DNA of 64,000 bases. Source: Marinobacter sp. Lineage in GTDB: Bacteria > Pseudomonadota > Gammaproteobacteria > Pseudomonadales > Oleiphilaceae. The notes beneath the pieces were generated by a model. It was not told the DNA's origin. It saw only the letters and a program-made list of their open reading frames with translations, and searched no databases. Below, one piece after another: positions 43,706-63,800 of this stretch. The translations under genes and the position numbers were made by a program. The stretch is taken from assembly GCA_018066865.1 (NCBI GenBank), contig JAGPVT010000184.1:1-64000 (forward strand), given 5' to 3'. Each line of letters begins with the position of its first letter. The first letter of the stretch is position 1.

Positions 43706-43720
43706 CACCGGAGTAAAAGA

Positions 43721-45997: not shown

Positions 45998-46822
45998 GTG
46001 GTGCCTGTGAACAACGAGGTTACCGAACGGCAGGCGGTCCGGGTTATGCGCCCGGAGTCGCCCCGTCAGGCGGTCAGTTTCGCCAAACGGTTCCGGGCGC
46101 CTTACATCGCTGGTGGCACCTGGCTGCAGCCATCCTGTGAACGTGACCGGCAGTGGCCCGCGCAGCTGGTAGTGCTGAACCCTGACTGGCCGGCATTTCG
46201 TGGCATTCGGGAGACGGATGGTGGTCTCAGCATTGGTGCGCTGACCACGCTGGACGAGCTGGCTCACCACCCTTTGACGGCGCTGTACCTTCCTCCACTG
46301 AACGGTTTGATTAAACGTGTAGCAGGGCCCGGTGTGCGTCATCTGGGCACGGTCGGCGGCAATCTGCTTGCTGGCGGGGACCTGTCAGCGCTGGCGCTCG
46401 CCCTGGACACTGAAGTGGACGTTGTGGGGGGCAAAGGGAGTAACCGCCGGCCTTTGGCTCGATGGTTCCTGGATCGGCCGGTCAGCGACCTGCTCAGATC
46501 TGTCACCGTACCGGATTGCCGTGGCTGGCGAGTCTCTGTGGAAAAACTTGGCTATCGGGAGCGCTTTAGCCCCACCCGGGCCACCGTGGCCTGTGTCCAT
46601 GATGGCGAGCAGGTGCAGCTGGGGGTGTGTGGTGAAGGGGGTTCCGGGCGGCTGATGGTTACCGAAGCCATGCTGAGAGATGAAGGTATTCGTGAACTCA
46701 CGGATCTGGCCATAGTGATGGACAGTGAGCTGGAAGCTCTGGGCTGGCACGATACTCGGCTAAGGCTGGCCGCACGCAGGATGCTGGAGTCCGGATTGAT
46801 GGAAGTGACCCGTGACGCATGA
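45998..46822 (+). CDS. molybdenum hydroxylase FAD subunit (CoxM/XdhB type)
   Basis: A protein of about 274 residues with the FAD-binding pattern PYIAGGTWLQPS and GVRHLGTVGGNLLAGGDLSA. Starts at GTG 45998 or 46007 are both possible, and neither has a clear ribosome site. It forms a heterotrimer with the next two products. It passes electrons from the molybdenum centre via 2Fe-2S clusters to NAD+ or another acceptor. Confidence 0.85.
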   Translation: MVPVNNEVTERQAVRVMRPESPRQAVSFAKRFRAPYIAGGTWLQPSCERDRQWPAQLVVLNPDWPAFRGIRETDGGLSIGALTTLDELAHHPLTALYLPPLNGLIKRVAGPGVRHLGTVGGNLLAGGDLSALALALDTEVDVVGGKGSNRRPLARWFLDRPVSDLLRSVTVPDCRGWRVSVEKLGYRERFSPTRATVACVHDGEQVQLGVCGEGGSGRLMVTEAMLRDEGIRELTDLAIVMDSELEALGWHDTRLRLAARRMLESGLMEVTRDA

Positions 46823-49115: not shown

Positions 49116-49657
49116 GTGATCATTATCAGGTACCCGAAACACCGGCACAGGAAAACATCAGTTTCGAGCTGAATGGAGAAGCGGTTACCCGGTCAGCGCC
49201 GAGTGCCGAGACCTTGCTGGATATCCTGCGCGAATCTGGCCAGATCACCTCAGCCCGGGCCGGGTGCCGTGTAGGTCGATGCGGTGCCTGCCAGGTACTG
49301 CTGGATGGTCGTGCTGTGCCGTCTTGTCTGGTGATGGCCTGGCAGCTGCCAGGCCATCATGTGGAAACCGTGGAGGGGTTGAACAAAGATCCCGATTTTC
49401 TCTCTGTACGCGACGCACTGGCAAGTGAGAGTGCCTTGCAGTGTGGCTACTGCACACCGGGTTTTGCGGTCTCTCTGGTTGCGGGCATCAGGCAGCGCCG
49501 ACAGGGAAGTACGGTGGATCTGACGGAATCTGTGGCTGGCAATCTCTGTCGTTGTACCGGTTATGGCGGCCTGCGGCGTGCCATTGATCAACTTTCTGCC
49601 CCTGGCTGTCCGGATGAAGCGGATGGCCAGGGCGCGTCACTATCGGAAAATCAATGA
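49112..49657 (+). CDS. molybdenum hydroxylase 2Fe-2S subunit (CoxS type)
   Basis: A 181-residue protein with the plant-type cluster motif CRVGRCGACQVLLDG and the second cluster motifs CGYCTPGF and CRCTGYGG. The ATG overlaps the large-subunit stop by 4 bases. It completes an FAD-Mo-FeS heterotrimer encoded in the order M-L-S. Confidence 0.92.
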   Translation: MSDHYQVPETPAQENISFELNGEAVTRSAPSAETLLDILRESGQITSARAGCRVGRCGACQVLLDGRAVPSCLVMAWQLPGHHVETVEGLNKDPDFLSVRDALASESALQCGYCTPGFAVSLVAGIRQRRQGSTVDLTESVAGNLCRCTGYGGLRRAIDQLSAPGCPDEADGQGASLSENQ

Positions 49658-50534
49658 TGACTACGACCTTTGCCAGTAAACGCCAGCTCCTGTTGTGCGC
49701 GGACGCCGTGCTGCCCATGACTGCTGGTAATCCCATAGTCCAGGACGGTGCAGTGCTGGTGATGGGTGAAACCATTGAAGCCGTTGGCCCCCGTTCGACG
49801 TTGCTGGAACGTGCCCCGGATGCCGAGGTCCGGGATTACGGTCGCGCGGTGCTGATGCCGGGGCTGGTGGCCGGGTCAACGTATGGGTGGGTCTGGAACA
49901 CCAATACTATGCTACAGAAGCTGCGTGCCGTCGGGCGGTGGATCTGTGCGATCACTACAGCACCGGATTTCATACCCACTCGAACGAAAGCCAGAGCGAA
50001 ATCCCCGAGGCCATGCGCCGGCATGGTATGAGCCCTGTCCGGGCTCTGGAGAAGCTGGGTCTGCTGTCGCCAGAACGGGTATTGCTGGCCCATTGTGTCT
50101 GGCTTGATGATGACGAACTGCAGTTGCTGGCAGCCAACAACATCGGCGTTGCTCACAATCCCTCAAGCAACATGAAGCTGGCCAGCGGTCCGGCGCCTGT
50201 GGAAGCCATGATCGCCGCCGGTATCGCAGTGGGTATTGGCACAGATGGTGAAAAGGAAAACAACAATCTGGACATGTTCGAGGAAATGAAAATCGCCTCG
50301 CTGCTGGCCAAGTTGCGGGCCATGGATGCTGCCGCCTGGAAATCCTGGGATGTCCTGCGGGCGGCTACCATCGATGGTGCCAAGGCATTGGGCATGGATC
50401 GTGATATTGGTTCTCTGGAGCCAGGCAAACAAGCTGATGTGATAGCCGTACGCGCCGCGACCGGTGGCTTGCCTCGAACAGGAAGGGAGTGGCGACGCCG
50501 GTCTAAGCTCTTGCAGAGTAGGCAGGGCGTTTAA
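49654..50534 (+). pseudogene. broken ATZ/TRZ-type amidohydrolase
   Basis: The N-terminal part (49654 to about 49870) ends at AVLMPGLV, just where the metal-binding H-x-H should follow. The sequence then shifts frame and continues from about 49876 as VWVGLEHQYYATEAA, with HTHSNES, LLAHCVWLDDDEL, GVAHNPSSNMKLASG and GIGTDGEKENNNLDMFEEMK. About 110 residues, including the first metal ligands, are missing. The C-terminus also stops early after KQADVIAVRAATGG, without the last strand. Its ATG overlaps the 2Fe-2S gene, so it was once the coupled partner of the molybdenum hydroxylase. Confidence 0.88.
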
Positions 50535-50541
50535 ACGCCCT
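50524..50541. terminator. perfect palindrome between convergent genes
   Basis: AGGGCGTTTAAACGCCCT is an 18-base perfect palindrome that contains the stop codon of the broken amidohydrolase. It lies between converging units and could act as a weak bidirectional terminator. There is no long U-run. Confidence 0.4.
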
Positions 50542-50572
50542 CCCGGTTTATTCCTTTCAGTAACGGGTTTTC

Positions 50573-51463
50573 TCAGACCGAAAGCAGGACAAAGTCATCC
50601 TTGGTAACCAGACATTCCGGGCACACCCAATCATCCGGGATGTCATCAAATGGCGTTCCTGGCGGAATGCCTGAGTCCGGGTCACCTACCGTCTCGTCGT
50701 AGATCCAGCCGCACACCTGACACACCCATTGGGGAGCTGCGCCTTCACTGGCTTGAGCAGGCGGCTGTTCGGCGGAATCGTTGGCCGCTTGTTCGCGGAT
50801 TGCGCCAAGGCGGCGTTCGAATGCCAGCCGGCCCTTCTGTTCCAGCTCAAATGCCCGCAAGACCCTCGCCTCAACGCGCGCCTGCCGGTCCTGGGTGGTG
50901 GCGTAGCGGTGTACGGTCATACGCCCCAGAGAAACATGGAACTTCTCATCAGGAATGATCTTCTGAAGCATCGCACGGGTGCTTTCGGGAATTCGCGGCA
51001 GAAGTCCCTCGAAGGCGTCCATGGCGCCCAGTTCTCCGGTGATGTTGTGGGCCGCTACCCGTTCCAGGGTATCGTCGCCGCTGGCGTAAAATTCGCTGAC
51101 CCACTCAACCCATTCGGGCTCCGGTGACCAGCCCTCCATGGATGCCCCCAGAGACTGCAGGTGGGACAGGATCAGCTTGTAGTGTTTGCCTTCGTCGGCG
51201 ACCTGCTGGCACAGTCCAATAAATACCTCTGGTTCTGGTGTGTCCCGCAGCCACGAACCAATAAATCCAGCGGCTTCCTGCTCATACCAGCACTGGAATT
51301 TAAGCCATTCAAGCAGTTCAGCCCGATCCAGTGGCTGGTAGCCGCCAAAACTCTTTTCCGGCTCGGAGAGAGCATCCCGGCGCTGTTCAAGGCTTCGAAC
51401 CAGATCATCATAGAAAACTTTCGGGTCGACAGCGGGTTTCTGCATGGCGGTAGCGCTACTCAT
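50573..51463 (-). CDS. ferritin-like diiron protein fused to a rubredoxin
   Basis: A 296-residue protein. Residues about 45-225 form a helical ferritin-like domain with candidate iron ligands E61/E63 (WYEQEA), E91 and H94 (DEGKHY), E144 (TGELGA), E173 and H176 (DEKFH). Residues 245-296 are a full-length rubredoxin (C248, C251, C281, C284; [20 protein letters not shown]) of the AlkG kind, not the short rubrerythrin finger. The two parts are joined by an Ala/Pro/Gln linker. It could be a peroxidase or an oxygenase with its own electron donor. It is coupled to the metallohydrolase gene upstream by a 4-base overlap. Confidence 0.82.
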
Positions 51464-52662
51464 ACAGCCTCCTTCAGTTCTGCGGTCTGCTTCTGGTCGT
51501 GAATAGCGTCATACCACTTGCCGTTACGCAGGCATCCCACCGCCCGCAGCCGACGCTGCGCAACAAGTTCCTCATTGCCGTCAGACAGGGTGCAGGGACC
51601 TTCTTCGATATCCAGCACGCTGACTTCAGCCGGCCGCCCGATACTCAGCGAGCCATAGGTGTCCTGCTTGTTGATGGCGCGGGCCGGGTTAATGGTGGTC
51701 ATGGCAATGACCTGATCCAGCGGTACGTCGAGAGCCCAGATTTTGGACATGGTGGTTGACAGCGAGTATACCGGCCCGTCCACGTTGAACACGTTCAGGT
51801 CGGTAGAAATAGTGGTCGGCAGGTAACCCCGTTCGATCAGCCTCCGTGCGGTACGGAAGTGGAAGTCCCCGGCGGAATGACCGATATCCATGAGCACGCC
51901 CCGCTCGTAGGCATCTTTGTAGGCTTTGGTCGGCTCACCGTTCTGGTCGAGCTGCCCACCGCCGCCGCGACAGGCATGGGTTATCATGTCGCCCTTGCGA
52001 AGCTTGTAAAGCAGCTTTTCCGTGTCCAGTACCGGCGTATGTGGGAACGCGCCGAGGTGGATCATGACGGGCAGGTCGGGGGCAATCTGATGGGCAGCTT
52101 CCAGAAATGGCGAACGGTCCGGGTCGTCGGTAATGGTCGCCCGCACCTTGAACCCGACGATAACATCGCGGTTGTCATCCACCACTTTTTTGGCAGACTC
52201 AACATCGATATTGCGCTCATCATCGGCAATGCGCAGGTAGTGGCAGACGAATGTTTTGTTGGCCAGGTAGATCTGCGAAGGGTCGAGAAGAGCGAAGATT
52301 TTGGTTTTGGTATCCGGGTGGTCAATGATGCCCTTGCGGGCGAGCCCGAAAATGGTGCTGCTGGTGGTTCCTGCGTCGACCATGATCGGCACCCCTGAAT
52401 CGACCCCCATGAGATCCGTTGGCAGGCAGAAGTCGCCCAGCCCGGTGTAGCAGTGGGTATGGATATCGATCAGGCCGGGCGTCACAACCTTGTTGGTCAT
52501 GTCCAGAACCCGGGCGTCAGGGTATTGTTGGCCGGCATCCGGTCCAACGGCAATAATGGTGTCACCCTTGGTGACGACGTCGGCAATGCCGTCGAACCCG
52601 TTGGCGGGATCGATAACCCGGCCGCCTTTCAATACCTGCACATCGTTTTGCGCGGAAGGCAT
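51460..52662 (-). CDS. amidohydrolase/deacetylase-family metallohydrolase
   Basis: A 400-residue dihydroorotase-like enzyme of the COG3964 (EF_0837-type) group. Metal-binding DIHTHCYTG, a likely carboxylated lysine in VIVGFKVRA, and [22 protein letters not shown] and [14 protein letters not shown] give the other ligands. Known relatives hydrolyse N-acyl or cyclic amide bonds; the substrate here is unknown. It is the first gene of a two-gene operon with the diiron-rubredoxin fusion, behind a sigma-54-like promoter at 52788. Confidence 0.82.
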
Positions 52663-52787
52663 AGCATTCCTCCAGAATCTCTCGAGAACCGTACGCCAGA
52701 GAGGCGTTATGACAGAGGAATGTCATCTTGACTCAGGAGTCTGATCCAGGAGGTTCTCTCGGCCCGGAAATTCCCTGAGAAAGGCCA

Positions 52788-52803
52788 AGCAGGATACATG
52801 CCA
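52788..52803 (-). promoter_or_regulatory. sigma-54-type promoter of the deacetylase/diiron operon
   Basis: On the minus strand: TGGCAT-GTATC-CTGCT, with GG and GC spaced by 10 and one mismatch per half. It is about 125 bases before the start codon. Confidence 0.5.
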
Positions 52804-52848
52804 GCGATTCCGGAGGCGCCGTTAGTGACCGGGACATCAGGCAATTAA

Positions 52849-52862
52849 TGATCAGATGGTCA
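52849..52862. promoter_or_regulatory. RutR-like palindrome, distal site
   Basis: TGATCA-GA-TGGTCA is one base from TGACCA-N2-TGGTCA. It lies 46 bases upstream of the leftward -24 element and 131 bases from the partner site at 52993. Confidence 0.6.
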
Positions 52863-52967
52863 ATAAAGCCGGCTGTTTATGGTGCAAATTGAAGCGAAAT
52901 GAGCGCTTGCGGTGCGTTTGGAAGCCAGATTCAGGGTGCTCACTGGCAACGGGTGAGGTCTGAGGCG

Positions 52968-52983
52968 TGGCATAGCGATTGCT
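52968..52983 (+). promoter_or_regulatory. sigma-54-type promoter of the ATZ/TRZ deaminase gene
   Basis: TGGCAT-AGCGA-TTGCT has a single mismatch to TGGCAC-N5-TTGCW and the correct GG-N10-GC spacing. The transcription start would be near 52993, inside the palindrome. Confidence 0.65.
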
Positions 52984-52992
52984 TTTAAAAAC

Positions 52993-53006
52993 TGATCAAG
53001 TGGTCA
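52993..53006. promoter_or_regulatory. RutR-like palindrome, proximal site
   Basis: TGATCA-AG-TGGTCA, flanked by AAC and GAT, lies at the predicted transcription start 20 bases before the deaminase ATG. This is a repressor position. Confidence 0.65.
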
Positions 53007-53025
53007 GATAGTATCAGGAGTCAGT

Positions 53026-54372
53026 ATGTCCAGTTTTGCAATCCGCCATGCCGCGATATTCACCGTTGATCCTCGCGATCGGGTGGTTCCGGCTGGCACC
53101 CTGGTGGTGCAGGACGGCATCATTACCCAGATAGGAGATGACCGGGAGGTAAACATCCCGGAAGGCTGTGAGGTGATTGATGCCCGGGGGCACGCCTTAT
53201 TGCCGGGTCTGATCGACTGCCACTCCCATTCCAGCCTGATGCGGGGTGTCACGGAAAACATGCCGCTGATGGAGTGGCTGCCCTGGTACCAACTGGAACA
53301 CCGGGCCATGACAGAAGAGTTCGCCTACCATTCTGCCCGCCTGTGTTATCTGGAAGCCCTGCAGTCCGGCACTACCTGTGTTATGGATATGTTCCGCTTC
53401 ATGGATCGCTGCGCTGATGCGGCTGCCGAGCTGGGCCTGAGGGTTCAGCTGGCACCTTATGTGGCAGACAAGCCTGGTAAGGATTTTTTCTCTACCCGGG
53501 AAGAAAACCGCCGGCTGATTCACAGCCATCATGAAACCCGGAACGGTCGCATCCGTGTATGGATGGGGCTGGAGCATCTGTTTTACTGCACTGGAGACGC
53601 CTATCGCGAAGCTGCGCAGCTGAGTCGGGAGTATGGTGTGGGTATTCACACCCATTGCAGCGAACAGAAAGAGGAAGAGCAGGCGGTTACCGCTGAGCTG
53701 GGGCGCCGGTCACTGGCTATGCTGGATCATTACGGAATTCTTGGTGAACGGACTCTGTTGGCCCACTGTGTCTGGCTGAACGATGACGAAATCGCCCGGG
53801 TGGCTGACACCGGCACCAGCATTGCCCACTGCCCGGTGAGCAACGCCAAACTGGCCAGTGGTGTGGCGCGAGTACCGGAAATGCTTGCGGCCGGTGTGAC
53901 AGTGGGGCTGGGCACCGATGGCCCTGTCTGTAATAACAGCCTGAATATGTTTGAGGAGATGAAGTTTGCCTCCCTCATTCAGAAGGCTGCTCGCCTGGAC
54001 GCCACCACTATGCCCGCCGACCAGATTCTGCGCATGGCTACCATAAACGGCGCAAGAGCCCTGGGGCTGGATGGTGAGATCGGTTCCCTGGAGGTGGGCA
54101 AAAAGGCGGATCTGCTGTTGCTGAATCTTTCCAGGGCCAATATGACACCTGTCAGCGTGAATGAAGAGGGCGGCAACCTGCTGTGGAACCTGGTGTTTTC
54201 TGCCGGTAGTACGAATGTGGCCGGCGTCTGGGTGGATGGCGTTCGCCTGATCGATAACGGTGAGGCCGTGCAGGTTAGCCAGCGTTCAGTTATTGCTGCC
54301 GCCCAGTTTCAGGGGCTGGCCCTGCAGGAGGCATGCCGGACGCTTTCCCATACACGAACCACCATGGTTTGA
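53026..54372 (+). CDS. ATZ/TRZ-family amidohydrolase (aminoheterocycle deaminase)
   Basis: A 448-residue metal hydrolase of the SAH/MTA deaminase-TrzN-AtzA group, starting at ATG 53026 with AGGAG upstream. Metal and catalytic motifs are intact: DCHSHSSLMRG, GIHTHCSEQKEEE, LLAHCVWLNDDE and GLGTDGPVCNNSLNMFEEMK. It is the intact relative of the broken gene at 49.7 kb. It probably hydrolyses an amino or similar group from a purine, pyrimidine or triazine-like ring. The exact substrate cannot be read from sequence. It is a single-gene unit. Confidence 0.85.
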   Translation: MSSFAIRHAAIFTVDPRDRVVPAGTLVVQDGIITQIGDDREVNIPEGCEVIDARGHALLPGLIDCHSHSSLMRGVTENMPLMEWLPWYQLEHRAMTEEFAYHSARLCYLEALQSGTTCVMDMFRFMDRCADAAAELGLRVQLAPYVADKPGKDFFSTREENRRLIHSHHETRNGRIRVWMGLEHLFYCTGDAYREAAQLSREYGVGIHTHCSEQKEEEQAVTAELGRRSLAMLDHYGILGERTLLAHCVWLNDDEIARVADTGTSIAHCPVSNAKLASGVARVPEMLAAGVTVGLGTDGPVCNNSLNMFEEMKFASLIQKAARLDATTMPADQILRMATINGARALGLDGEIGSLEVGKKADLLLLNLSRANMTPVSVNEEGGNLLWNLVFSAGSTNVAGVWVDGVRLIDNGEAVQVSQRSVIAAAQFQGLALQEACRTLSHTRTTMV

Positions 54373-54510: not shown

Positions 54511-54906
54511 TTATGAGGAGGGTGTCTGCATCACACTGACGTGGGCAGCCACCACCTTCCAGCCTTCAGCGAATCGGACCCAGGTCTGCATCTGGCGACC
54601 GAAGTTGTCTGTTTCGCCATCCCGGAACTGAGTGCTGACGGTGGCGAAGGTGTCACCAAAGGTAGTTACCACCGTGCCATGAAGGGTCCGTCCCGGCCCT
54701 ACTGGCTGACATTGCCGCCGATAGGCTTCTATAGCGTCAGCGCCGTAGAGATTTTCGGCAACGCCAAAGCGGACCGTGAATTCAGAACTCCAGAAATAGC
54801 CGTCAAGTACGTCCAGCTCGTTATCGAGCAGAGCCTTTTCATAGGTCTCGAAGGCATAGGTGACGCTGGCTACTGCGTCGGGTGCATTGACGATCAGATC
54901 AGTCAT
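54511..54906 (-). CDS. AtzH-like (DUF3225, NTF2-fold) protein
   Basis: A 131-residue protein with an NTF2-like fold, resembling the DUF3225/AtzH proteins found with AtzF. I start at ATG 54906 ([15 protein letters not shown]), with GGAG 8 bases upstream and an 8-base overlap with the AtzF gene. Segments such as EFTVRFGVAENLYGADAIEAY and WKVVAAHVSVM match the family. Its role in the allophanate pathway is unsettled. It is the last gene of the leftward operon. Confidence 0.78.
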   Translation of the reverse strand: MTDLIVNAPDAVASVTYAFETYEKALLDNELDVLDGYFWSSEFTVRFGVAENLYGADAIEAYRRQCQPVGPGRTLHGTVVTTFGDTFATVSTQFRDGETDNFGRQMQTWVRFAEGWKVVAAHVSVMQTPSS

Positions 54907-56749
54907 TATCGATCTCCGGGGATGATGGGGTAGTGGGTGGTGCAGGTACGGAGGAAGGCTTAGCCATGTACTGGCGCCAGCCCCCTGTCGCACTGATATC
55001 TGTGGCACCCTCTATGCCGCAGGGTTCGCAGATAAAGCCGGTGCACCAGGTGCCGTCTTCAAGCTCTAGCTGGCCGATGCCCAGAGGGTGAGGGATACCG
55101 GCCACAAAAGTGCCAAACCTGTCTTCCAGCACCCGCCATACTTCCACCTCAATGGCGAAACCGGTGCCCTCAGACCGGATCAGACCAGGTCGATACGGTG
55201 GCCCCCCGGCCAGTGCGTAGAAGCGGTAGTGGGGGGCTGTGCGAGTTTGCCTGACCAGGACGGCGCCTCGTTCGGTCAGCTGGCTGTTTAAAGGGTATCC
55301 TTCCAGATGAGCACCGCAGACCGCTACATCCAGGGTGTTTGGCGTTTGGGAGAGGCTCTCCTTTGGGAGTGGGTCAGTGGTGGCACCAACAGTTTCCGTT
55401 ACCCGTTGGTGGAGTCCGTTGGCCAGGGCGCTCAGCACGGTATCGCTCCAAGCTGGGCCAAACAGGGTGACGCCCCACGGCATGTTATTCGCCAGGAACC
55501 CGGCAGGAACGGACACCGCCGCGTAGTCCAGCAGGTTCATGAAGTTGGTAAATGCTCCAAGGCGCGCATTGAGCACCACGGGATCAGCGATCATGTCGGC
55601 TATGGTGCAGGGTCCGGGGCAGGTGGGCGTAATGATTGTGTCCACCGTTGCCAGGATACGGTCGGCCTCTTGTTTCAGTGTCGCGAGCCGGTACTGGGCG
55701 CGAAATGCGTCGCTTGCGGAGAGCTTGTCGCCATTGGCCACGACATCGCGGACCACAGGGTTGATCATCGCAGGATTGTCTACGAGTTCGCTGATAGCCA
55801 GTTGTCGCTCTGTAACCCAAGGGCCATCATAGAGCAGCTCTGCGGCCTCGGAGAAAGGGCGAAAGTCGATTTCCACGGCTTTCCCGCCAAGGGCCTCGAG
55901 ATGTCCAACTGCGGCTTCGAAAAGCCCTTTCGCTTCCTGGTATTCCTCCAGCGCGAGTTGCCCGGCCGGGGGGATACCGAAAGTAAATATTTTGCCGATC
56001 AGACGGCTGGGGGGTTGGTGGTTTTTTTGCCAGGGATCGGCGGGGTTGTGCTTGTCCGCCAGAGTCAGAACTTGATTGGCCTGAACCATGGTGCGGGCGA
56101 AGATCGATACGCAATCAAGGGTCTGGCACGCGGGTACAACGCCTTCAACGCTCAGCCTTCCCAGGGTGGGCTTGAGACCGGCGATATGGTTGAGTGCTGC
56201 TGGTACCCGACCAGAGCCTGCCGTATCGGTACCCAGCGCGAAGCTGACGATGCCCAGTGCCACCGCCACGGAGGAGCCAGCGGAAGAACCGCCGGAGACC
56301 CAGTCTCCATCAAAGGCATTGCCACAGGGTCCGAAGTCAGAGCGGGTGCCGTTGAGCCCGGTAGCGAACTGATCCAGGTTGGTTTTGCCTACGGGGATGG
56401 CCCCAGCGGCCAATAACTGTTTGACTACAAACGCGCTGTCCTCCGGAAGGATGTTTACATGCCGGTTCGCCACCGTAGTAGGGATCCCCTTCAGGTGGAT
56501 ATTGTCTTTGATGGCAAACGGTACGCCGTACAGCGGTAGTGATTCCGGTGATTCGCCATCAAGGAATTGCAGAAAGGGTTCGCGCTCTTCCGGAGTCAGG
56601 TAGTGAATCCAGATGTTCCGGTCGTGGAAAGCCGTCTGATAGTCGTCTAGCTTCGCCAGCAGTGCTCTGGGAGTCATATCTCCGGAGCGGTACAGGTGCT
56701 GGAGATGATCAATGTCGAGCCTCACAGGTGGTGTAAATCGTTCGTTCAT
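54899..56749 (-). CDS. atzF: allophanate hydrolase (AtzF type)
   Basis: A 616-residue two-domain protein. An N-terminal amidase-signature domain (about residues 1-450) has the catalytic Lys in FAIKDNIH and the Ser-cisSer region in [12 protein letters not shown] and [12 protein letters not shown]. The C-terminal allophanate hydrolase domain (about 465-600) ends at [15 protein letters not shown]. It splits allophanate to 2 NH3 and 2 CO2. No urea carboxylase gene is nearby; the allophanate source is therefore more likely biuret, made by the adjacent cysteine hydrolases. It overlaps the upstream gene by 4 bases. Confidence 0.92.
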
Positions 56750-57432
56750 AACGCCTCCAGTCGTTGGAACAGGCTATTGGAATCGGTAACGGCACCGAAT
56801 ACGCCGCCCTGCATCTGGATCATCTTGATGGCGTGATCATGATTTGCCTGGTCAGTGGCGCCGCAGCAATCTTCCACCAGCACACACTCGAAGCCCCGGT
56901 CATTGGCATCGCGCATGGTAGTGTGAACGCAGACATCGGTGGTGATACCGGTCAGTACCAGGTTCTGGATACCCCGGGTCTTGAGGATCAGCTCGAGGTC
57001 GGTAGCATAAAAAGAGCCCTTGCCGGGCTTGTCGATGATCGGTTCGCCTACGCGGGGAGCCAGTTCCGGAATGATCTCCCAGCCAGGCTCGCCCCGAACA
57101 AGAATGCGCCCGCAGGGGCCGGGATCACCAATCCCTGCGCCGATCTGCCGGGAGCGCCAGCGCTTGTTGGCCGGCAGATCGCTGAGGTCGGGGCGGTGGC
57201 CCTCACGGGTATGGATCACTGGCATGCCCAGAGCACGAAAGCGGGCAAGAAGCTGACTGATGGGCTCGATAGGAGCTCGGGTAAGGGAGAGGTCATAGCC
57301 CATGGTGTCGACATAGCCGCCCTTGCCGCAGAAGTCTGTTTGCATATCGATAATGACCAGGGCGGTGTTGGTCTTGCCCAGGTTGTTGTCCCAAGGCCAG
57401 CTATAGGGACGGGAGTTCAGGGTGTTGGTCAT
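56746..57432 (-). CDS. biuret-hydrolase-like cysteine hydrolase, copy 1
   Basis: A 228-residue isochorismatase-like hydrolase with candidate triad D29 (VIIDMQ), K135 (IIDKPGKG) and C168 (TTDVCVH). The D-K-C spacing equals that I recall for Rhizobium BiuH (D36, K142, C175). BiuH hydrolyses biuret to allophanate and ammonia, exactly the substrate of the AtzF coded next. RutB-type ureidoacrylate hydrolases are the other near group. It follows copy 2 by 21 bases. Confidence 0.85.
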
Positions 57433-57453
57433 GGCTGATTGGTCCTGAATCGG

Positions 57454-58158
57454 TCAAAGGGTGGAAAGGGCTTCAAGGAGTTGTTCGGAGGTCGCCGTGG
57501 CCCCGAACAGTCCGCCCTGCATTTCAGTCATAGTGAAAATTGCATCCCGGTGCCGGGTTTCGGTGGCGGCGGTGCAGTCCCGCAGTATCAGTGTCTCCAG
57601 CCCTCGGTCGTTGGCATCACGGATGGTGGTGTGTACGCACACATCGGTGGTCAGGCCAACGACGATGAGGTGAGTAATGCCTCGCAGCCGCAGAATGTGA
57701 TCCAGGTCGGTGGCGTAGAAAGCGCCTTTTCCGGGTTTGTCGATCACGATTTCGCCAGGGGCTGGCGCCAGCTCCGGAATGATTTCCCACCCCGGTTCAC
57801 CACGCACCAGAATCCTGCCCAGAGGGCCGGCATTGCCGATGCCGGGACAGACCTGTTCGCTGCGCCATTGCTTGTTCGCAGGCAGGTCGACCAGCTCCGG
57901 TCGATGGCCTTCACGGGTGTGGATGACCAGCGCCTCAGGCAGCTTGCGAAACGCTGCCAGCACGCGCTGTATGGGATCGATGGTGGCTCTCGCGGGAGTT
58001 AGATCGACCCCCTGGGAGTCGATGTAACCTCCCGGGGCGCAGAAGTCCTTCTGCATATCGATAACGATCAGCGCCAGTCGTCGAGGCGCCACCGGCGCGA
58101 TGCAAGGCCATGCATAGGGCCTTGCATCTGCTACCGTGAAGGTTGCCGCTTGGCTCAC
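57454..58158 (-). CDS. biuret-hydrolase-like cysteine hydrolase, copy 2
   Basis: A 234-residue paralogue of the gene downstream, about 60% alike by eye, with the same catalytic set ([35 protein letters not shown]). The main differences are in the N-terminus and around the substrate loop. Two such enzymes in tandem may use different ureido compounds or form a mixed complex. It overlaps the binding-protein gene by 4 bases. Confidence 0.83.
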   Translation of the reverse strand: MSQAATFTVADARPYAWPCIAPVAPRRLALIVIDMQKDFCAPGGYIDSQGVDLTPARATIDPIQRVLAAFRKLPEALVIHTREGHRPELVDLPANKQWRSEQVCPGIGNAGPLGRILVRGEPGWEIIPELAPAPGEIVIDKPGKGAFYATDLDHILRLRGITHLIVVGLTTDVCVHTTIRDANDRGLETLILRDCTAATETRHRDAIFTMTEMQGGLFGATATSEQLLEALSTL

Positions 58159-59216
58159 TTAAGCCGCCCCTGGACGCCTTGCACCAGGAAGTCCATCTTC
58201 TCGGTTTCTTCAAGGGTCATGGTGTCACCTTCCTCGACGATCACCGTCCCATCCTGGCCAAACACCGGGCCGGCCCAGACCCGGAACTCCTCGTTCATAA
58301 TCGCTTTCTGGCGATCCAGCACGGTCTGTTGATCTTCTTCACTGACAGCGCTGCCGAAGTCGCTGAGCTTGGCGGCTTCGGTTAGCAGGTCGCCCCTCAG
58401 GTGCTCGGATTTCCAGCTGCCGTCTTTGGCGGAATTGACGATGTCGATCATCATCGGGCCCCAGTTCCAGATTGCTCCGACCAGCCAGCCTTTAGGTGCG
58501 AACTGGCTTGCATCGGCGTGGTAGCCCACGGAGTAGACGCCCCGGCGCTCTGCTACCTGGACATAGTTGATGGGGGAGTCCACATGGCCGGTTAGTACAT
58601 CGGCACCGCCACTGATCAGGGCTTCCGCCGCTTCAGCTTCCCTGGTTGGGTCCGACCAGCTGGAGGTCCAGATTACGGAAGTGGTGACTTCCGGGTTCAC
58701 GCTCTGGGCGCCCCGGGTGAAGGCGTTGATGTTACGAAGTACCTGCGGGATCGGGTGCGCGGCGATAAAACCAAGCTGGTTGGTCCCGGTGGTCAGGCCA
58801 GCGGCGACACCGGCCAGGTACATGGCCTGGTCGATCTCGGCGAAGTAGGTCATCAGGTTGTCAGAGGTCTTTAGGCCACCGGAGTGGGCAAAATGAACGT
58901 CGGGATACTTCTCGGCCACCTTCAGAGCATGGTCAAGATAGCCATAGCTGGTCGGGAAAACCACTTCCACACCGGAGCGAACCATGCGTTCCATGACGCG
59001 TTGTACATCCGCGTTCTCCGGGATGTTCTCGAAGTACAGGGTTTCCACGTCGTCCATGTGCTCTTCCATGTAAAGCCGGCCCTGGTCCTGAGCATAGTTG
59101 TAGCCGTAGTCAGACTTCGGACCAACGTAAATAAAGCCAACCTTGGTCTCTGCGGCGGCCTGGACACTGATTGCCAGGATAGAAGTAGCGAGTAGAGTGC
59201 GGATTACTTTTTTCAT
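58155..59216 (-). CDS. BMP-family periplasmic binding protein of the second importer
   Basis: A 353-residue protein starting at ATG 59216 (MKKVIRTLLATSILAISVQA, a signal peptide) with GGAG upstream. It shares VGFIYVGPKSDYGYNYAQDQG and VLTGHVDSPINYVQVAE with the BMP protein at 25.1 kb, but differs in the pocket region (TGHVDSP against QHTDSP). It supplies the ligand to the two permeases and ATPase in the same operon. Confidence 0.87.
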   Translation of the reverse strand: MKKVIRTLLATSILAISVQAAAETKVGFIYVGPKSDYGYNYAQDQGRLYMEEHMDDVETLYFENIPENADVQRVMERMVRSGVEVVFPTSYGYLDHALKVAEKYPDVHFAHSGGLKTSDNLMTYFAEIDQAMYLAGVAAGLTTGTNQLGFIAAHPIPQVLRNINAFTRGAQSVNPEVTTSVIWTSSWSDPTREAEAAEALISGGADVLTGHVDSPINYVQVAERRGVYSVGYHADASQFAPKGWLVGAIWNWGPMMIDIVNSAKDGSWKSEHLRGDLLTEAAKLSDFGSAVSEEDQQTVLDRQKAIMNEEFRVWAGPVFGQDGTVIVEEGDTMTLEETEKMDFLVQGVQGRLK

Positions 59217-59247
59217 GGTGATTCTCCGTTTGATAATGTCTGGTTGG

Positions 59248-60180
59248 TTATCGGGCACTTTGGAATACCACACTGAGACCGGCTGGCATGCCGCCACCGC
59301 TTGCCCGGAGGCCGCGATAGCTGAGCATCAGCACGCTCAAGGGGATCATGTAAGGGAGGGTTGCCAGCAGGTAGGGAGAAATGTTCACGCCCCACGACTG
59401 CAGTTTCAGGTTGAGGGCTTCGGAGGCGCCAAACAGTAAGGCCGCAGGTAAGGCATACCATGGGTTCCAGCGGGCAACAATGACCAGACCGACGGCGACC
59501 AGCCCCCGGCCTGCGGTCATGCCTTCGACCCAGTTTGCGGTGTAGTCCACCGCCAGTGCGGCACCTGCAAAACCTGACATCAGACCACCAAAGGCAATGG
59601 CGGCCAACTGGTAGTGCACTGGGTTATGCCCGAGGTTGCGGGTGATGTCCTGGGATTCGCCGGTGGAGCGCCAGCGCAGGCCGGTACGGGTCCGAAACAG
59701 GAAAATGGAGATGGCCGGGATAGCGAGCAGGGTGATCAGCACAGTTGGAGTGATGGGGCCGAGAAACTGGCCGAGCAGCGGGATATCGCTGACGAACGTA
59801 TGGTTCAGGTTGCCCAGGGTGTCAATCTTGTCGCCTACGAAAGGCGTGCCATAGTAGGCACTGAGACCACCGCCGAGAATCAGCACGGCAACACCGCTGG
59901 CAATCTGGTTAGCGCCGCACCCGAGTACAAGTATGGCGTGCACCATCGATAGTGCGATGCCGGCAAAGCAGGCTGCCATGACGCCCAGCCAGGGGTCGCC
60001 GGTCACGGACGCCACCGCGAAGCCGGTCATTGCGCCCAGCAGCATCTGGCCTTCCACGCCGAGGTTGATCACACCGCTGCGCTGGGTCATGGCCTCGCCC
60101 AGCACCACGGCGAGCACGGGTGTAGCGCTGCGCAGGGCGGCGAACAGGAGGGTAAGGAGTTCGGTTGCAAAATATTCCAT
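59248..60180 (-). CDS. second ABC importer, permease NupQ-like
   Basis: A 310-residue permease with TQRSGVINLGVEGQMLLGAM and TAGRGLVAVGLVIVARWNPW, parallel to the gene at 40.3 kb. It lies 31 bases upstream of the binding-protein gene. Confidence 0.87.
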   Translation of the reverse strand: MEYFATELLTLLFAALRSATPVLAVVLGEAMTQRSGVINLGVEGQMLLGAMTGFAVASVTGDPWLGVMAACFAGIALSMVHAILVLGCGANQIASGVAVLILGGGLSAYYGTPFVGDKIDTLGNLNHTFVSDIPLLGQFLGPITPTVLITLLAIPAISIFLFRTRTGLRWRSTGESQDITRNLGHNPVHYQLAAIAFGGLMSGFAGAALAVDYTANWVEGMTAGRGLVAVGLVIVARWNPWYALPAALLFGASEALNLKLQSWGVNISPYLLATLPYMIPLSVLMLSYRGLRASGGGMPAGLSVVFQSAR

Positions 60181-60217
60181 ACAGGGTCCTTTGGATTGCT
60201 ATCGGGCCTTGGGCCGT

Positions 60218-61276
60218 TCAGATGTCACGGCGCCGGCCCCACAGGCTTGCCACGGCGAGCACGATGATGAACAGCAGCGCCTGAAGAATGTCGGCACTGG
60301 CTTTGGGAAGCTGGGCATACAGTTGCAGAGAGTCAGCGGAGGCCAGCAGCCCGCCCATCAACACCGATAGAGGAATGATTCGCAGGAAATGCTGTCCGGC
60401 GAGCCATGCCACCAGAAAGCCGGTCATGCCATAGCCGCTGGCCAGACCATCCTGCAGACGGTTCTGGATCACAGAGGCTTCGGCGATACCGGCGAGGCCA
60501 GCCAGTAATCCGCCCACGGCCATGACAATGAGTACGTTGCGTTCGTAGGAAATGCCGGCGGTCGCCCCGACTCGTGGGTTGCTGCGGCTGACTTGAAGTC
60601 CAAGGCCCCAGCGGCTTCGGGTTACCAGTATGTGCAGGATGATGGCGGCTACTATGCCGAACACCAGCCCCATGTGGACCCGGGTGTCGAAGAATTGCGG
60701 CAGGATCGCCCCGGCCGGAAACTCAATAGTGGCGGGCCATCCAAGAGAGTTAGGGTTTTTCCAGGGGCCATGAACCACAAAGCTGACCAGGAGGATGCCC
60801 ACGTAGTTCAATAACAGGGTGGATATGGTTTCATTGACTCCGAGACGGGTCTTGAGCAGCCCGGGGATAACGCCCCAGAGCGCGCCGCCAGCCATCGCGC
60901 CGGCCAGCATCAGCGGCATCAATATCCAGCCCGGTTGATCCACCGCGGCCAGCACGGCCCCGGTGCCAAACAGGGCGCCCAGGTAGAGTTGCCCTTCGCC
61001 ACCTACACTGATCAGTCCAAGCCGGGCGGGTAAAGCGACTGCCAGTGCGGTCAGCAGGATAGGGGCGGTTTTGACCAAGGTTTCACTGAAGGAATAACTG
61101 TCGCCAAAGGCACCCATGACCATTTCCTGGAACAGGGAAACCGCTTCACGGCCGTTGATGGCAAAGAATGCCAGGGTCGCCACCACGAAAATGGTTGCCA
61201 TGCCCAGAACGGCACCGGCCGGGCCCCTGAGCAATCGCAGGCCGAGTTTTACAGGGAGTTGGGTTGCATTTGTCAT
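60218..61276 (-). CDS. second ABC importer, permease NupP-like
   Basis: A 352-residue permease with LGLISVGGEGQLYLGALFGT and LGVNETISTLLLNYVGILLV, parallel to the gene at 39.1 kb. It overlaps the ATPase gene by 4 bases. Confidence 0.87.
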   Translation of the reverse strand: MTNATQLPVKLGLRLLRGPAGAVLGMATIFVVATLAFFAINGREAVSLFQEMVMGAFGDSYSFSETLVKTAPILLTALAVALPARLGLISVGGEGQLYLGALFGTGAVLAAVDQPGWILMPLMLAGAMAGGALWGVIPGLLKTRLGVNETISTLLLNYVGILLVSFVVHGPWKNPNSLGWPATIEFPAGAILPQFFDTRVHMGLVFGIVAAIILHILVTRSRWGLGLQVSRSNPRVGATAGISYERNVLIVMAVGGLLAGLAGIAEASVIQNRLQDGLASGYGMTGFLVAWLAGQHFLRIIPLSVLMGGLLASADSLQLYAQLPKASADILQALLFIIVLAVASLWGRRRDI

Positions 61277-62841
61277 GATGCGGCCCTCACTCGCGGGTCG
61301 GCGGGTTTCTGCTCAGGTGGTCGTTGGGTTCTGGCAGGCTGATGTTCGCCAGTCATGGCTCGGCCGATGTCGAGCCGGTCGCATTCCCGTGGGTCGAAAA
61401 TCCCGGAAATCCGGCCGCCCTGCAGCACGGCAATGCGATGGGCGTAAGACATGAGATCGTCCAGGTCTTCCGAGATCCACAACACCGCAGCGCCTTCGTT
61501 TGCCTTGGCAAACAGGGCCTGGTAAATGTCATGGGCAGCGCCGGCATCCAGCCCCATGGTGGGGTAGGCGGCGACGATCAGGTCTTTGTCTCCCTCCAGT
61601 TCTCTGCCCACCACCAGTTTCTGGAGGTTGCCGCCAGACAGTTGGCCTGCCGCCAGGGCCGGGTTGTCGGGGCGTACCTGATAGCGTTGGATAATGTTCC
61701 GGGTCAGTTGTTCTTCCGGTGCCCAGGCGGGGAAAAAGCTGAGATGCCTAAAATGAGAGAGCGCCACATTGGTTGTCAGCGACAGATCCGCCGCGACCGC
61801 ATTGACTGCCGGTTGTTCCGGTATATAGGAAACCCTGCCTGAGGTGCTCGGGGGGCGACTGGCGGACTGCAGGAGATAGCCGTCGATGATGACTTCTCCC
61901 CTGGCCAGCGGGGTCAGGCCCACCAGTGCGTCTGCCAATAGGTGCTGGCCATTGCCGGAAACGCCGGCAACCCCGAGAATTTCGCCGGGCGCAATATCCA
62001 GTCGGATGTTCTCCACTGACTGTGCTCCGTGACGGGCATGGAGGTCCCGGATGGAAATCCGGGGCGGCCGGTTGGCGAAGGCTTCACGAGGCGTGACTTC
62101 AATGGCGGAGCGCTGGTTGCTGTCCCCCATCATCAGGCTGACCAAAGAGGATTCGGTGCACTGCTTACGGTCTAGCGTCTGAACCATCCGACCGGCCCGC
62201 ATCACGACAACCCGGTGAGCACAGGCCATCACGTCCTGCATCTTGTGGGTGATAAGCACCACGCTGCGGCCAGCCTCCGCCAGTTTGCGGATAAGTCCCC
62301 ACAGGCGTTCTGCTTCCTGGGGCGGTAGTACTGATGTGGGCTCGTCCAGAATCAGAACCTTTGCATCCAGGTTCAGCACCTTGACCAGTTCAAGTAGTTG
62401 CCGCTGCCCTACGGAAAGGTCGCGCACCAGCGTGTCTGGTGCCAGTCCTGGTGCCAGCTCCTGCAGATAGGTGAGTACGGCCTTGCGAGGAGATGTACGG
62501 AAAAGCCGGCGAAAGGTCCAGAAGGGCGATTTCGGGTAGGCCAGTAGCAGGTTGTCCAGCACGGACAGCGCGGGAACCAGATTGAACTGTTGGAACACCA
62601 TGCCAATGCCCAGAGACATTGCTTTCTGGGGTGACTCAATGGTGGTTTCCCGATCATTAATCAGAATGGCGCCGCCATCCGGAGGATACAGGCCGAACAG
62701 CATCTTCATGAGCGTGCTTTTGCCGGCACCGTTCTCTCCGAGCAGTGCAACCACCTCTCCGGCGCGAATGTCCAGAGAGATTCCGTCATTTGCCGTAACG
62801 TCGCCGAAGCGCTTGGTGATGTTGTAAAGCTGGATATTCAT
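61273..62841 (-). CDS. second ABC importer, double ATPase subunit
   Basis: A 522-residue RbsA-like tandem ATPase. The first domain has GENGAGKST, LSVGQRQLLELVKVL and LILDEPTSVLPPQE. The second has GVSGNGQHLLAD and SGGNLQKLVVGREL. It is the first gene of the leftward operon that runs through the importer, two cysteine hydrolases, atzF and the AtzH-like gene. Its promoter carries a sigma-54-like element and a putative GntR operator. Confidence 0.9.
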   Translation of the reverse strand: MNIQLYNITKRFGDVTANDGISLDIRAGEVVALLGENGAGKSTLMKMLFGLYPPDGGAILINDRETTIESPQKAMSLGIGMVFQQFNLVPALSVLDNLLLAYPKSPFWTFRRLFRTSPRKAVLTYLQELAPGLAPDTLVRDLSVGQRQLLELVKVLNLDAKVLILDEPTSVLPPQEAERLWGLIRKLAEAGRSVVLITHKMQDVMACAHRVVVMRAGRMVQTLDRKQCTESSLVSLMMGDSNQRSAIEVTPREAFANRPPRISIRDLHARHGAQSVENIRLDIAPGEILGVAGVSGNGQHLLADALVGLTPLARGEVIIDGYLLQSASRPPSTSGRVSYIPEQPAVNAVAADLSLTTNVALSHFRHLSFFPAWAPEEQLTRNIIQRYQVRPDNPALAAGQLSGGNLQKLVVGRELEGDKDLIVAAYPTMGLDAGAAHDIYQALFAKANEGAAVLWISEDLDDLMSYAHRIAVLQGGRISGIFDPRECDRLDIGRAMTGEHQPARTQRPPEQKPADPRVRAAS

Positions 62842-62870: not shown

Positions 62871-62880
62871 TTGTATGCAA
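62871..62880. promoter_or_regulatory. putative GntR operator, site 1
   Basis: TTGTATGCAA, a near-palindrome of the kind bound by FCD-type GntR proteins, lies at the predicted start of the leftward importer operon. Nine of its bases (TGTATGCAA) recur at 63083-63091. Confidence 0.5.
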
Positions 62881-62883
62881 GAC

Positions 62884-62899
62884 TGCATGGATCATGCCA
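62884..62899 (-). promoter_or_regulatory. sigma-54-type promoter of the importer/biuret operon
   Basis: On the minus strand: TGGCAT-GATCC-ATGCA, with GG and GC spaced by 10 and one mismatch per half. It predicts initiation near 62873, within the GntR site. Confidence 0.5.
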
Positions 62900-62961: not shown

Positions 62962-63082
62962 CCACAGTGAAAATCGGTCGAAACAATGTTTTATTTTGGT
63001 GCAATAAGTCCGGGTATGCACAGAAGGAGGACGTGGATATGGGGATGGAGTCGATTGAAAAGTATCCGGTTATAGTTAATGA

Positions 63083-63092
63083 TGTATGCAAC
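63083..63092. promoter_or_regulatory. putative GntR operator, site 2
   Basis: TGTATGCAAC repeats site 1 over nine bases and sits 19 bases before the gntR start codon, suggesting autorepression. Confidence 0.45.
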
Positions 63093-63110: not shown

Positions 63111-63800
63111 ATGACTGTATCAACACGGAAGTGGACCACCGATCGCATCTACGACAATCTGCGTCAGGGTATTATGACTCTCGAGTTGTATCCGGGTAGC
63201 CGGGTCACAGAGACGGAGTTGGCGCAACGGTTTGGCGTCAGCCGGACACCGGTTCGCGAAGCGCTGCAACGGCTGGCTGTGGAAGGGTATCTGACCATTC
63301 GTCCCAAGCACGGTTGCTATATTCGCCAACTCGATGTTTTTGAACTGGCGGAATACTACGACGTGCGGGTTGGGCTTGAGCTGGAAGGGGTGGCGCTTAC
63401 AAGCCAGCGGGTACCCTACCGGGAATTAGCACAGCTTGCGGACGACTGGGACCCGCGGAAGCTGATGTACGGTTCCGAAGGAACGGAATGTTTCAAGGAT
63501 GCCGAAGAGGCTTTTCATATCCGGCTCGCCAGCCTCAGCGGCAATACGGTGCTGGTGCAGTACCTGAAGGGTGTGAATGACCATATCAGGATTGTTCGGC
63601 GCCTGGGGCTGCCCGATACGGAAAGCGTGATGAAAACCTACGAAGAACATTATGAGATCTGTCAGAGAATCCTTGCCAACGACCTGTCTGCGGCCACCAA
63701 TGTGCTGCGAGCTCATATTCACGAAAGTCAGGCCAAGAGTCGTGAAGTGACTCTGGCTCAGTTGGAAACCCGTCGGCGTTTGAGGGAATTGGAAGGGTAG
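63111..63800 (+). CDS. GntR-family (FCD) regulator of the biuret/formamidase locus
   Basis: A 229-residue regulator starting at ATG 63111 with AAGGAAGGAG upstream. A longer frame back to 62967 exists but lacks a good ribosome site and family sequence. It has a winged helix (RVTETELAQRFGVSRTPVREAL) and a C-terminal FCD domain. It is divergent from the importer/biuret operon and upstream of amiF, so it is likely to sense the imported nitrogen compound or its product. Confidence 0.87.
   Translation: MTVSTRKWTTDRIYDNLRQGIMTLELYPGSRVTETELAQRFGVSRTPVREALQRLAVEGYLTIRPKHGCYIRQLDVFELAEYYDVRVGLELEGVALTSQRVPYRELAQLADDWDPRKLMYGSEGTECFKDAEEAFHIRLASLSGNTVLVQYLKGVNDHIRIVRRLGLPDTESVMKTYEEHYEICQRILANDLSAATNVLRAHIHESQAKSREVTLAQLETRRRLRELEG

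What the first reader, a model, noticed from the sequence alone, without database searches (positions are those of the whole stretch)
54511..62841. Importer operon with two biuret-type hydrolases, allophanate hydrolase and an AtzH-like protein
A complete BMP-type ABC importer is co-transcribed with two tandem cysteine hydrolases that keep the D-K-C spacing recalled for biuret hydrolase, followed by AtzF and an AtzH-like gene. There is no cyanuric acid hydrolase, urea carboxylase or AtzE in view. BMP transporters are known for nucleosides and bases, not for biuret or triazines. The operon may define uptake and mineralisation of biuret or another ureido compound, possibly a pyrimidine/purine product.
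Basis: partly seen in the sequence, partly recalled or inferred. Interest (0 to 1): 0.8.

Follow-up and report, generated by a model that had tools for sequence, protein, structure and literature searches.

The report
Biuret-scavenging operon with an altered hydrolase
A marine bacterium carries, beside its genes for breaking down purines, a nitrogen-scavenging operon that appears to import and digest biuret-like compounds; this kind of operon is already known, but here one of the two digesting enzymes has an altered lid and may act on a different, unidentified substrate.

Summary
The eight genes are real and form one unit: ATPase, two permeases, BMP binding protein, hydrolase A, hydrolase B, AtzF and an AtzH-like protein. 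The host is a Marinobacter-type bacterium. The core is known in kind: BMP importer + BiuH, often with TrtA, recurs in other bacteria and is in print (PMC12625717, PMC7948467).

Hydrolase B looks like an ordinary biuret hydrolase. Hydrolase A is not a tandem copy of it. It sits on a long side branch of the BiuH family, occurs in 8 of 124 Marinobacter genomes (beside B in all 8), is under purifying selection, and keeps the catalytic and substrate-binding residues checked. Yet the gate tyrosine, invariant in 114 of 114 BiuH rows typed, is valine, and the lid is remodelled. No TrtA-type gene was found in these 8 genomes. Best guess: A does TrtA's job (triuret) or takes a related ureide.

The binding protein has the Tyr45/Gln165 pocket common in biuret operons; purine-locus BMPs have Trp45/Glu165. 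A conserved sigma-54-like site and two operator-like sites suggest nitrogen control. The operon abuts a purine/urate cluster.

All substrates are inferred. New variant of a known kind.

The parts
61273..62841 (-). ABC importer ATPase, first gene of the operon
   Evidence: PF00005, two stretches; NF047930 393.6 bits, below its cut-off of 670
60218..61276 (-). ABC importer permease 1
   Evidence: PF02653; overlaps the ATPase by 4 bases
59248..60180 (-). ABC importer permease 2
   Evidence: PF02653
58155..59222 (-). BMP-family periplasmic binding protein with Tyr45/Gln165 pocket (AtzT numbering)
   Evidence: PF02608; nearest solved structures AtzT 6pi5 276.9 bits and 3s99 256.9 bits; pocket residues YSYMQNWHD
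57454..58158 (-). Hydrolase A: BiuH-family cysteine hydrolase with altered lid and gate (Val51 for Tyr); substrate inferred, triuret or a related ureide
   Evidence: NF050097 349.9 bits, cut-off 370; residue tables; tree
56746..57432 (-). Hydrolase B: biuret hydrolase BiuH
   Evidence: NF050097 413.8 bits, cut-off 370; best solved match 6azo (R. leguminosarum BiuH), 377 bits; BiuH residues Y Y S D T Q V
54899..56749 (-). Allophanate hydrolase AtzF
   Evidence: TIGR02713 720.3 bits, cut-off 511.05; PF21986 C-terminal domain
54511..54906 (-). AtzH/HpxZ-like protein, candidate decarboxylase
   Evidence: PF11533 168.9 bits; HpxZ 159 bits; AtzH 6bjt 110.3 bits with the catalytic Tyr and Arg kept
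62884..62899 (-). Sigma-54 -24/-12-like site TGGCATGATCCATGCA, conserved in the 5 Marinobacter loci aligned
62871..62880 (+). Operator-like site TTGTATGCAA, just downstream of the sigma-54-like site
63082..63091 (+). Second operator-like site ATGTATGCAA, just before the regulator gene
63111..63800 (+). GntR/FCD regulator, divergent (start inferred from an AAGGAG-type site; the ORF list gives 62967)
   Evidence: PF00392, PF07729; sequence
25121..54372 (.). Neighbouring purine cluster: purine-type BMP protein, 8-oxoguanine-deaminase-like amidohydrolase, urate oxidase (Urate_ox_N), guanine deaminase, XdhABC, second importer, Tsx-like porin, PuuE allantoinase, allantoicase, XDH-like subunits, TRZ/ATZ amidohydrolases
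   Evidence: XdhA and the second importer's subunits were named by reading the ORFs, not by a family scan

Best explanation
A nitrogen-scavenging operon for flat neutral polyureas. Under nitrogen limitation a sigma-54 promoter drives one transcript, which the divergent GntR protein probably represses through TTGTATGCAA-type sites (inferred). The BMP protein captures a biuret/triuret-class ureide in a pocket that keeps the aromatic sandwich of purine binders but has glutamine for the purine-reading glutamate, and the ABC importer takes it in. Hydrolase A, a BiuH relative with a remodelled lid, most likely removes ammonia from a longer or substituted ureide (triuret the leading candidate), giving carboxybiuret. 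The AtzH-like protein, or spontaneous decarboxylation, then gives biuret. Hydrolase B (BiuH) converts biuret to allophanate and AtzF converts allophanate to ammonia and CO2. The neighbouring purine/urate genes suggest urate oxidation as one source. Shown here: gene content, order, residues, conservation. Inferred: every substrate and the regulation.
For: B meets the BiuH model cut-off and has the BiuH signature residues. AtzF meets its cut-off and is the only near-full-length AtzF match in this genome, which is 87.6% complete. A BMP gene lies on 58 of 83 biuH loci, and with TrtA as well on 44. Tyr45+Gln165 binding proteins: 5 of 6 fetched loci lie in BiuH+TrtA operons; Trp45+Glu165: 0 of 14 fetched. 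A keeps D, F, E, K, K, C, Q of the substrate site and is under purifying selection, dN/dS 0.03-0.08. No TrtA-type gene among the matches of 40% identity or more in the 8 genomes with A. Conserved sigma-54-like site and operator pair.
Against: No substrate is measured for A, for the binding protein or for the AtzH-like protein. A lacks TrtA's signature residues (F, N, E, Y, I) and has BiuH's Y, D and T at three of them. The overlap of A's changes with TrtA/BiuH-discriminating sites (5 of 9) is not unique: the Firmicutes control gave 4 of 5. Two of the 8 genomes with A are only 87.6% and 82% complete, and matches of 28-37% to TrtA were only partly typed. The Tyr45/Gln165 pocket is not universal: 9 of 63 BMP rows from these loci have Ser or Met at 165, 7 of them with Trp45. 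In 3 of 8 genomes with A, AtzF lies outside the operon. The purine link is a Marinobacter feature: 1 of 76 other loci had a purine gene by my criterion.
Confidence: 0.75

Rival explanations
1. Hydrolase A is just a second biuret hydrolase, for example a kinetic isoform that works at another biuret concentration.
For: It branches on the BiuH side (98 rows, support 98), not with TrtA, and has BiuH residues Tyr45, Asp172, Thr199.
Against: Tyr51 is invariant in 89 of 89 BiuH rows and in 25 of 25 more but is Val in 9 of 9 A rows. A departs at 9 to 12 of 108 BiuH-invariant sites, any BiuH row at no more than 5 (the sites were chosen on the BiuH rows, which favours them). It is kept beside a BiuH in 8 of 8 genomes.
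Confidence: 0.25
2. Hydrolase A takes another small ureide or amide, such as formylurea, and stands in for the formamidase that lies next to biuH in several canonical operons.
For: In R. johnstonii 3841 and five other loci the gene just before biuH is a formamidase (L081, L082, L083, L118, L187, L188), which is the slot A fills here. None of the operon's eight genes is a formamidase. TrtA itself has slight formylurea activity (PMC7948467, Table 2).
Against: A keeps the residues that hold biuret and triuret. Whether formamidase is part of the biuret pathway is not known, and L189-L191 have no formamidase match.
Confidence: 0.25
3. The importer brings in ordinary purine bases or nucleosides for the neighbouring purine cluster, and its linkage to the hydrolases is incidental.
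For: The relatives AtzT and 3s99 hold guanine and adenine (PMC6834077); the aromatic residues Tyr45 and Trp194 are kept.
Against: The window has a separate BMP protein of purine type, WSFREDWHD, in the purine cluster. Among fetched loci the Tyr45+Gln165 type lies in BiuH operons in 5 of 6, the Trp45+Glu165 type in 0 of 14.
Confidence: 0.15
4. Hydrolase A is a guanylurea hydrolase (GuuH).
For: GuuH belongs to the same family and its pathway ends in allophanate hydrolase (PMC9800807, passages).
Against: The hydrolase on pMET-2 that I take to be the characterised enzyme (the one cysteine hydrolase in the 50 kb viewed, beside a deaminase gene as the paper says) has Tyr for Lys132 and Glu for Gln202; A keeps Lys and Gln. 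None of the operon's eight genes is a guanidine carboxylase or carboxyguanidine deiminase.
Confidence: 0.04

Closest known systems
Biuret/triuret operon of Rhizobium johnstonii (leguminosarum) 3841 and Herbaspirillum (BiuH, TrtA; PMC7948467)
   Same: BMP protein, two permeases, ATPase, BiuH, a second isochorismatase-like hydrolase, GntR regulator (R. johnstonii)
   Different: There: formamidase and AtzD present, second hydrolase is TrtA, a cupin gene after it, different gene order. Here: no TrtA, no formamidase, A and B in tandem, AtzF and an AtzH-like gene inside the operon.
biuH-trtA-atzF-trtB-bmpA-nupABC clusters of nitrifiers (PMC12625717, section 8 part 1 and passages)
   Same: BMP importer beside biuH with a proposed purine origin of the substrate
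   Different: The paper reports no upstream purine degradation genes in its nitrifier MAGs; here such genes adjoin the operon, and TrtA was not found.
AtzT binding protein of Pseudomonas sp. ADP (PMC6834077, 6pi5)
   Same: Nearest solved relative, same aromatic sandwich (Tyr45, Trp194)
   Different: AtzT has Phe98, Thr139, Glu165, Asn218, Asn220; this protein has Tyr, Met, Gln, His, Asp.
AtzH of Pseudomonas sp. ADP (PMC6219798, passages)
   Same: PF11533, with the catalytic Tyr22 and Arg46 kept
   Different: No AtzD, AtzG or AtzE in the operon; here it follows AtzF in a biuret operon.

Membership tests
BiuH (biuret hydrolase), hydrolase B | NF050097 equivalog score at or above 370 | tested here: met
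   413.8 bits
BiuH, hydrolase B | Signature residues Y35, Y41, S134, D160, T187 (TrtA numbering; BiuH consensus in PMC7948467) plus triad and Gln202 | tested here: met
BiuH, hydrolase B | Activity on biuret | not testable with these tools
   bench assay needed
BiuH, hydrolase A | NF050097 score at or above 370 | tested here: not met
   349.9 bits
BiuH, hydrolase A | Gate Tyr at position 41 (TrtA numbering) | tested here: not met
   Val in 9 of 9 rows from 8 genomes
TrtA (triuret hydrolase), hydrolase A | Residues F35, N41, E160, Y187, I205 | tested here: not met
   Y, V, D, T, L; outside the 55-row TrtA clade, support 99
TrtA, hydrolase A | Activity on triuret | not testable with these tools
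   bench assay needed
GuuH, hydrolase A | Tyr for Lys132 and Glu for Gln202, as in the MET enzyme (a single sequence, identified by its place) | tested here: not met
   Lys and Gln kept
AtzF (allophanate hydrolase) | TIGR02713 equivalog score at or above 511.05 and the AH_C domain | tested here: met
   720.3 bits; PF21986 168.7 bits
AtzH/HpxZ | PF11533 above its cut-off | tested here: met
   168.9 bits, cut-off 27
AtzH | Catalytic Tyr22 and Arg46 (PMC6219798) | tested here: met
   Tyr and Arg of AtzH at chain positions 44 and 68 of 6bjt align with Tyr and Arg here; register fixed by the R73K variant chain 6d63, which differs at chain position 95
TrtB (carboxybiuret decarboxylase) | Homology to the characterised TrtB of Herbaspirillum | not tested
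   Aukema 2020 is not held; the family of TrtB could not be established here
Purine-type BMP binding protein | Glu165 (AtzT and 3s99) | tested here: not met
   Gln

The most novel reading that the evidence does not exclude
Hydrolase A is an independently evolved polyurea hydrolase: in Marinobacter the triuret step (or a step on another urate-oxidation ureide) was taken over by a BiuH relative through remodelling of the lid, and the whole route from purine ring to ammonia by way of oxidised urate lies in one genomic island under nitrogen control, fed by a BMP importer specialised for ureides.
Probability: 0.35. Interest if true: 0.65.

Novelty: new variant of a known kind. Interest (0 to 1): 0.45.

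Why it matters
The natural source of biuret and triuret is unsettled; [quoted passage not shown] An operon for such compounds that abuts urate oxidase, xanthine dehydrogenase, allantoinase and allantoicase genes makes it testable in one cultivable genus. Hydrolase A offers a natural experiment on how BiuH and TrtA tell two very similar substrates apart; in PMC7948467 no single mutant turned TrtA into a biuret hydrolase. The Tyr45/Gln165 versus Trp45/Glu165 pocket gives a testable sequence rule for ureide against purine importers.

Tried and rejected
Hydrolase A as TrtA: rejected on residues and tree. A as GuuH: rejected on two substrate-binding residues. A and B as a recent tandem duplicate: rejected, because B groups with Bradyrhizobium-type BiuH (support 90) and A with Salinisphaera, Sideroxydans and two other BiuH rows (support 74, 77, 97 and 92 on successive nodes, quick method, SH-aLRT alone); the exact sister of A is not firm. 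A as a decaying copy: rejected, dN/dS 0.03-0.08 against five distinct genomes, though dS is above 1 for two of them. The enrichment of A's changes at BiuH/TrtA-discriminating sites (5 of 9, P 0.005) is kept only as weak support, because control groups show it too (Firmicutes 4 of 5, Pantoea group 2 of 4, B 0 of 1, side branch 0 of 1, Bradyrhizobium group no change). Purine linkage as a general rule of biuret operons: rejected, 1 of 76 non-Marinobacter loci (matches over 100 bits to urate oxidase, guanine deaminase, Xdh, PuuE or allantoicase within the held flanks). The chance figures are for patterns written after the sites were seen, so they are descriptive, not tests. Structure prediction was not run: the fold is not in doubt and coordinates are not returned. 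The 'Marinobacter biuret' paper hit (PMC6379940) concerns only the biuret protein reagent in its passages. In one search my pattern did not find the ATPase start of L001, so the promoter footprint rests on 5 of 6 loci tried. L001-L004 are taken to be the same genomes as G077, G055, G090 and G051 (same scores), so the 9 A rows stand for 8 genomes.
Full report
What is there. On the minus strand from 62841 to 54511 lie eight genes in one unit: ATPase, permease, permease, BMP binding protein, hydrolase A, hydrolase B, AtzF, AtzH-like. A GntR/FCD regulator is divergent on the plus strand. The nearest named relatives of hydrolase A are Marinobacter records (L001 96%, L002 91%, L003 90%, L004 92%), and 124 genomes, the window's own included, were searched as its genus, so I call the host Marinobacter-type; its own record is unnamed.

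How common the theme is. They were chosen by similarity to A or B, not at random. Of these 84 loci, 83 hold a BiuH-type gene by residues, 58 of the 83 also a BMP protein on the locus, 52 a TrtA-type gene, 44 all three (partial contigs are counted). A usual order, as in Rhizobium johnstonii 3841, is BMP, permease, permease, formamidase, BiuH, (AtzD), ATPase, TrtA, cupin; in 12 of the 52 loci with BiuH and TrtA an AtzH-like gene lies within 3.5 kb after the start of TrtA. An mSystems 2025 paper (PMC12625717; section 8 part 1 and passages read) reports biuH with bmpA-nupABC in nitrifiers, and the TrtA paper (PMC7948467; parts 1-3 of 6 and passages read) reports operons with TrtA, BiuH and AtzF. 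So the importer-biuret link itself is not new.

Hydrolase B. It passes the BiuH equivalog cut-off (413.8 against 370), its best solved match is 6azo (377 bits), which PMC7948467 names as the Rhizobium BiuH structure, and it has the BiuH residues which that paper lists against TrtA.

Hydrolase A. It scores 349.9 on the same model, below the cut-off. In the tree of 157 rows (quick method) the 9 A rows form a clade (support 100) on a stem of 0.89 substitutions per site, on a side branch of BiuH; B lies in the main BiuH clade. The BiuH side (98 rows, A and B included) has support 98 and the 55 TrtA rows form one clade, support 99. A keeps the triad (D34, K141, C174) and the substrate residues F39, E83, K144, Q214 (positions). 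I compared 9 A rows, 89 BiuH rows and 55 TrtA rows, the last two classed by positions 45, 172 and 199 only. Position 51 (TrtA 41, at the active-site entrance) is Val in 9 of 9, Tyr in 89 of 89 and Asn in 55 of 55. Positions 46 and 49, in the same lid stretch, are Ile and Gln in 9 of 9 A rows against Val and Met in 89 of 89 BiuH rows. A phylum sample of 398 genomes returned 29 new loci of its best matches; they type as 25 BiuH, all with Tyr, 3 TrtA and 1 other. A departs at 9 to 12 of 108 BiuH-invariant sites, any BiuH row at 5 or fewer (the sites were picked on the BiuH rows, which favours them). dN/dS against relatives is 0.03 to 0.08, like that of B, so A looks like a working gene.

Where A occurs. 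8 of 124 Marinobacter genomes carry A at 81% identity or more, and all 8 have B next to it; in G051 B is frame-broken. Outside the genus no match in the phylum sample exceeded 62% identity. A TrtA search of these 8 genomes and two more gave, at 40% identity or more, only A, B and a third type in the 8 (typed); weaker matches of 28-37% were only partly typed, and G000 and G077 are 87.6% and 82% complete. G096 has a 58% TrtA but no A or B. AtzF matches are present in all 8: within the operon in G000, G034, G073, G077 and (broken) G051, elsewhere in G055, G082 and G090. A thus takes the TrtA place in the gene set, which is the main reason to propose triuret; no activity has been shown.

The AtzH-like protein. 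It keeps the Tyr and Arg that PMC6219798 (passages read) found important in AtzH (Tyr22, Arg46). It is a candidate for the carboxybiuret decarboxylation step, by analogy only; whether published TrtB belongs to this family I could not check.

The binding protein. Its nearest solved relatives are AtzT (6pi5) and 3s99. PMC6834077 (parts 1-3 of 5 read) gives the AtzT ligand residues. At positions 45, 97, 98, 139, 165, 169, 194, 218, 220 the window protein reads YSYMQNWHD. Of 63 BMP rows from these loci and the window, 51 have Gln165, 9 Ser or Met (7 of these with Trp45), 2 Glu and 1 Val; the commonest string is YSFQQNWHD, 44 rows. The 2 Glu rows are second BMP genes on loci that also have a Gln row. 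The window holds another BMP protein at 25121-26212, in the purine cluster, that reads WSFREDWHD. As a test I used BMP hits in 145 relatives and 185 class genomes: 53 loci were returned, while 18 further rows came without a locus and were not typed. All 6 Tyr45+Gln165 loci outside the A operons were fetched and 5 of 6 lie in BiuH+TrtA operons (the sixth, L192, lies beside another isochorismatase-type gene). Of 30 Trp45+Glu165 loci 14 were fetched: 0 of 14 have BiuH or TrtA in the 11-19 kb held, and 8 of 14 have Xdh-like genes. Three Trp45+Gln165 loci were not fetched. The pocket therefore tracks the operon type in this sample; the ligand itself is inferred.

Control. Aligning the ATPase-regulator gap of five Marinobacter loci shows, in otherwise diverged DNA, TGGCA[TC]GA[TA]CCATGCA (GG and GC ten bases apart, as in sigma-54 promoters, a motif I recall) and two copies of a TTGTATGCAA-like site, one just downstream of it and one before the regulator. 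A looser promoter pattern occurs 5 times in the window against 1.2 expected (3 of 100 shuffles reach 5); two other copies, at 52788-52803 and 52968-52983, point at the neighbouring amidohydrolases. The operator pattern occurs twice against 0.2 expected. Both patterns were written after seeing the sites. PMC6834077 states that both atz operons are sigma-54 dependent and induced by nitrogen starvation, which fits a nitrogen-scavenging role.

Neighbours. From 25 to 50 kb lie an 8-oxoguanine-deaminase-like enzyme, a urate oxidase (Urate_ox_N), guanine deaminase, XdhABC, an importer, a Tsx-like porin, PuuE allantoinase, allantoicase and XDH-like subunits, and glycolate oxidase genes lie at 17-21 kb. 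Some of these neighbours recur beside the operon in L002, L003, L004 and L127, but not in L122, and L001 shows only weak matches. Outside Marinobacter 1 of 76 loci has a purine gene by the criterion.

Judgement. The core is a known kind of operon. What is new to me is hydrolase A, the pocket rule and the purine island. My ten searches of the held library listed no paper that I recognised as describing a Marinobacter biuret operon or such a hydrolase; only the top rows of large listings were seen, most subscription papers are not held, and Aukema 2020 could not be read.

Noticed in passing
own genome G000 contig C13:39030-45377 (L123, L129): An AtzD homologue (52% to R. johnstonii AtzD) lies with an NMT1-type ABC importer, a HupE/UreJ-like gene (named by its likeness to L120) and a third isochorismatase-type hydrolase with Gly, Thr, Gly, Pro, Glu, Tyr at BiuH/TrtA signature positions. 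A similar hydrolase sits beside nitrile hydratase genes on a Stutzerimonas plasmid (L120; Asp for the first Gly), which might fit cyanamide-type compounds.
   Followed up: partly
L121 (E. coli plasmid p135-3); searches list many Escherichia plasmid records: A TrtA-type hydrolase (F, N, A, E, Y) sits beside fdrA, DUF1116, DUF2877, carbamate kinase and cytosine permease genes, an oxalurate-type cluster, on a plasmid typed as conjugative. Only this one record was opened.
   Followed up: no
49654-50534: A TRZ/ATZ-type amidohydrolase appears broken: its N- and C-terminal parts lie in different frames.
   Followed up: no
52788-52803 (-) and 52968-52983 (+): Sigma-54-like sites point into the amidohydrolases at 51460-52662 and 53026-54372, suggesting shared nitrogen control.
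   Followed up: no
   Followed up: partly
   Followed up: no
L081, L082, L083, L118, L187, L188: A formamidase gene lies just before biuH in these operons; its role in the pathway is unexplained.
   Followed up: no
50573-51463: A protein with a C-terminal rubredoxin domain and a ferritin-like N-terminal part (by eye), next to the amidohydrolases; matched also in L002 and L004.
   Followed up: no
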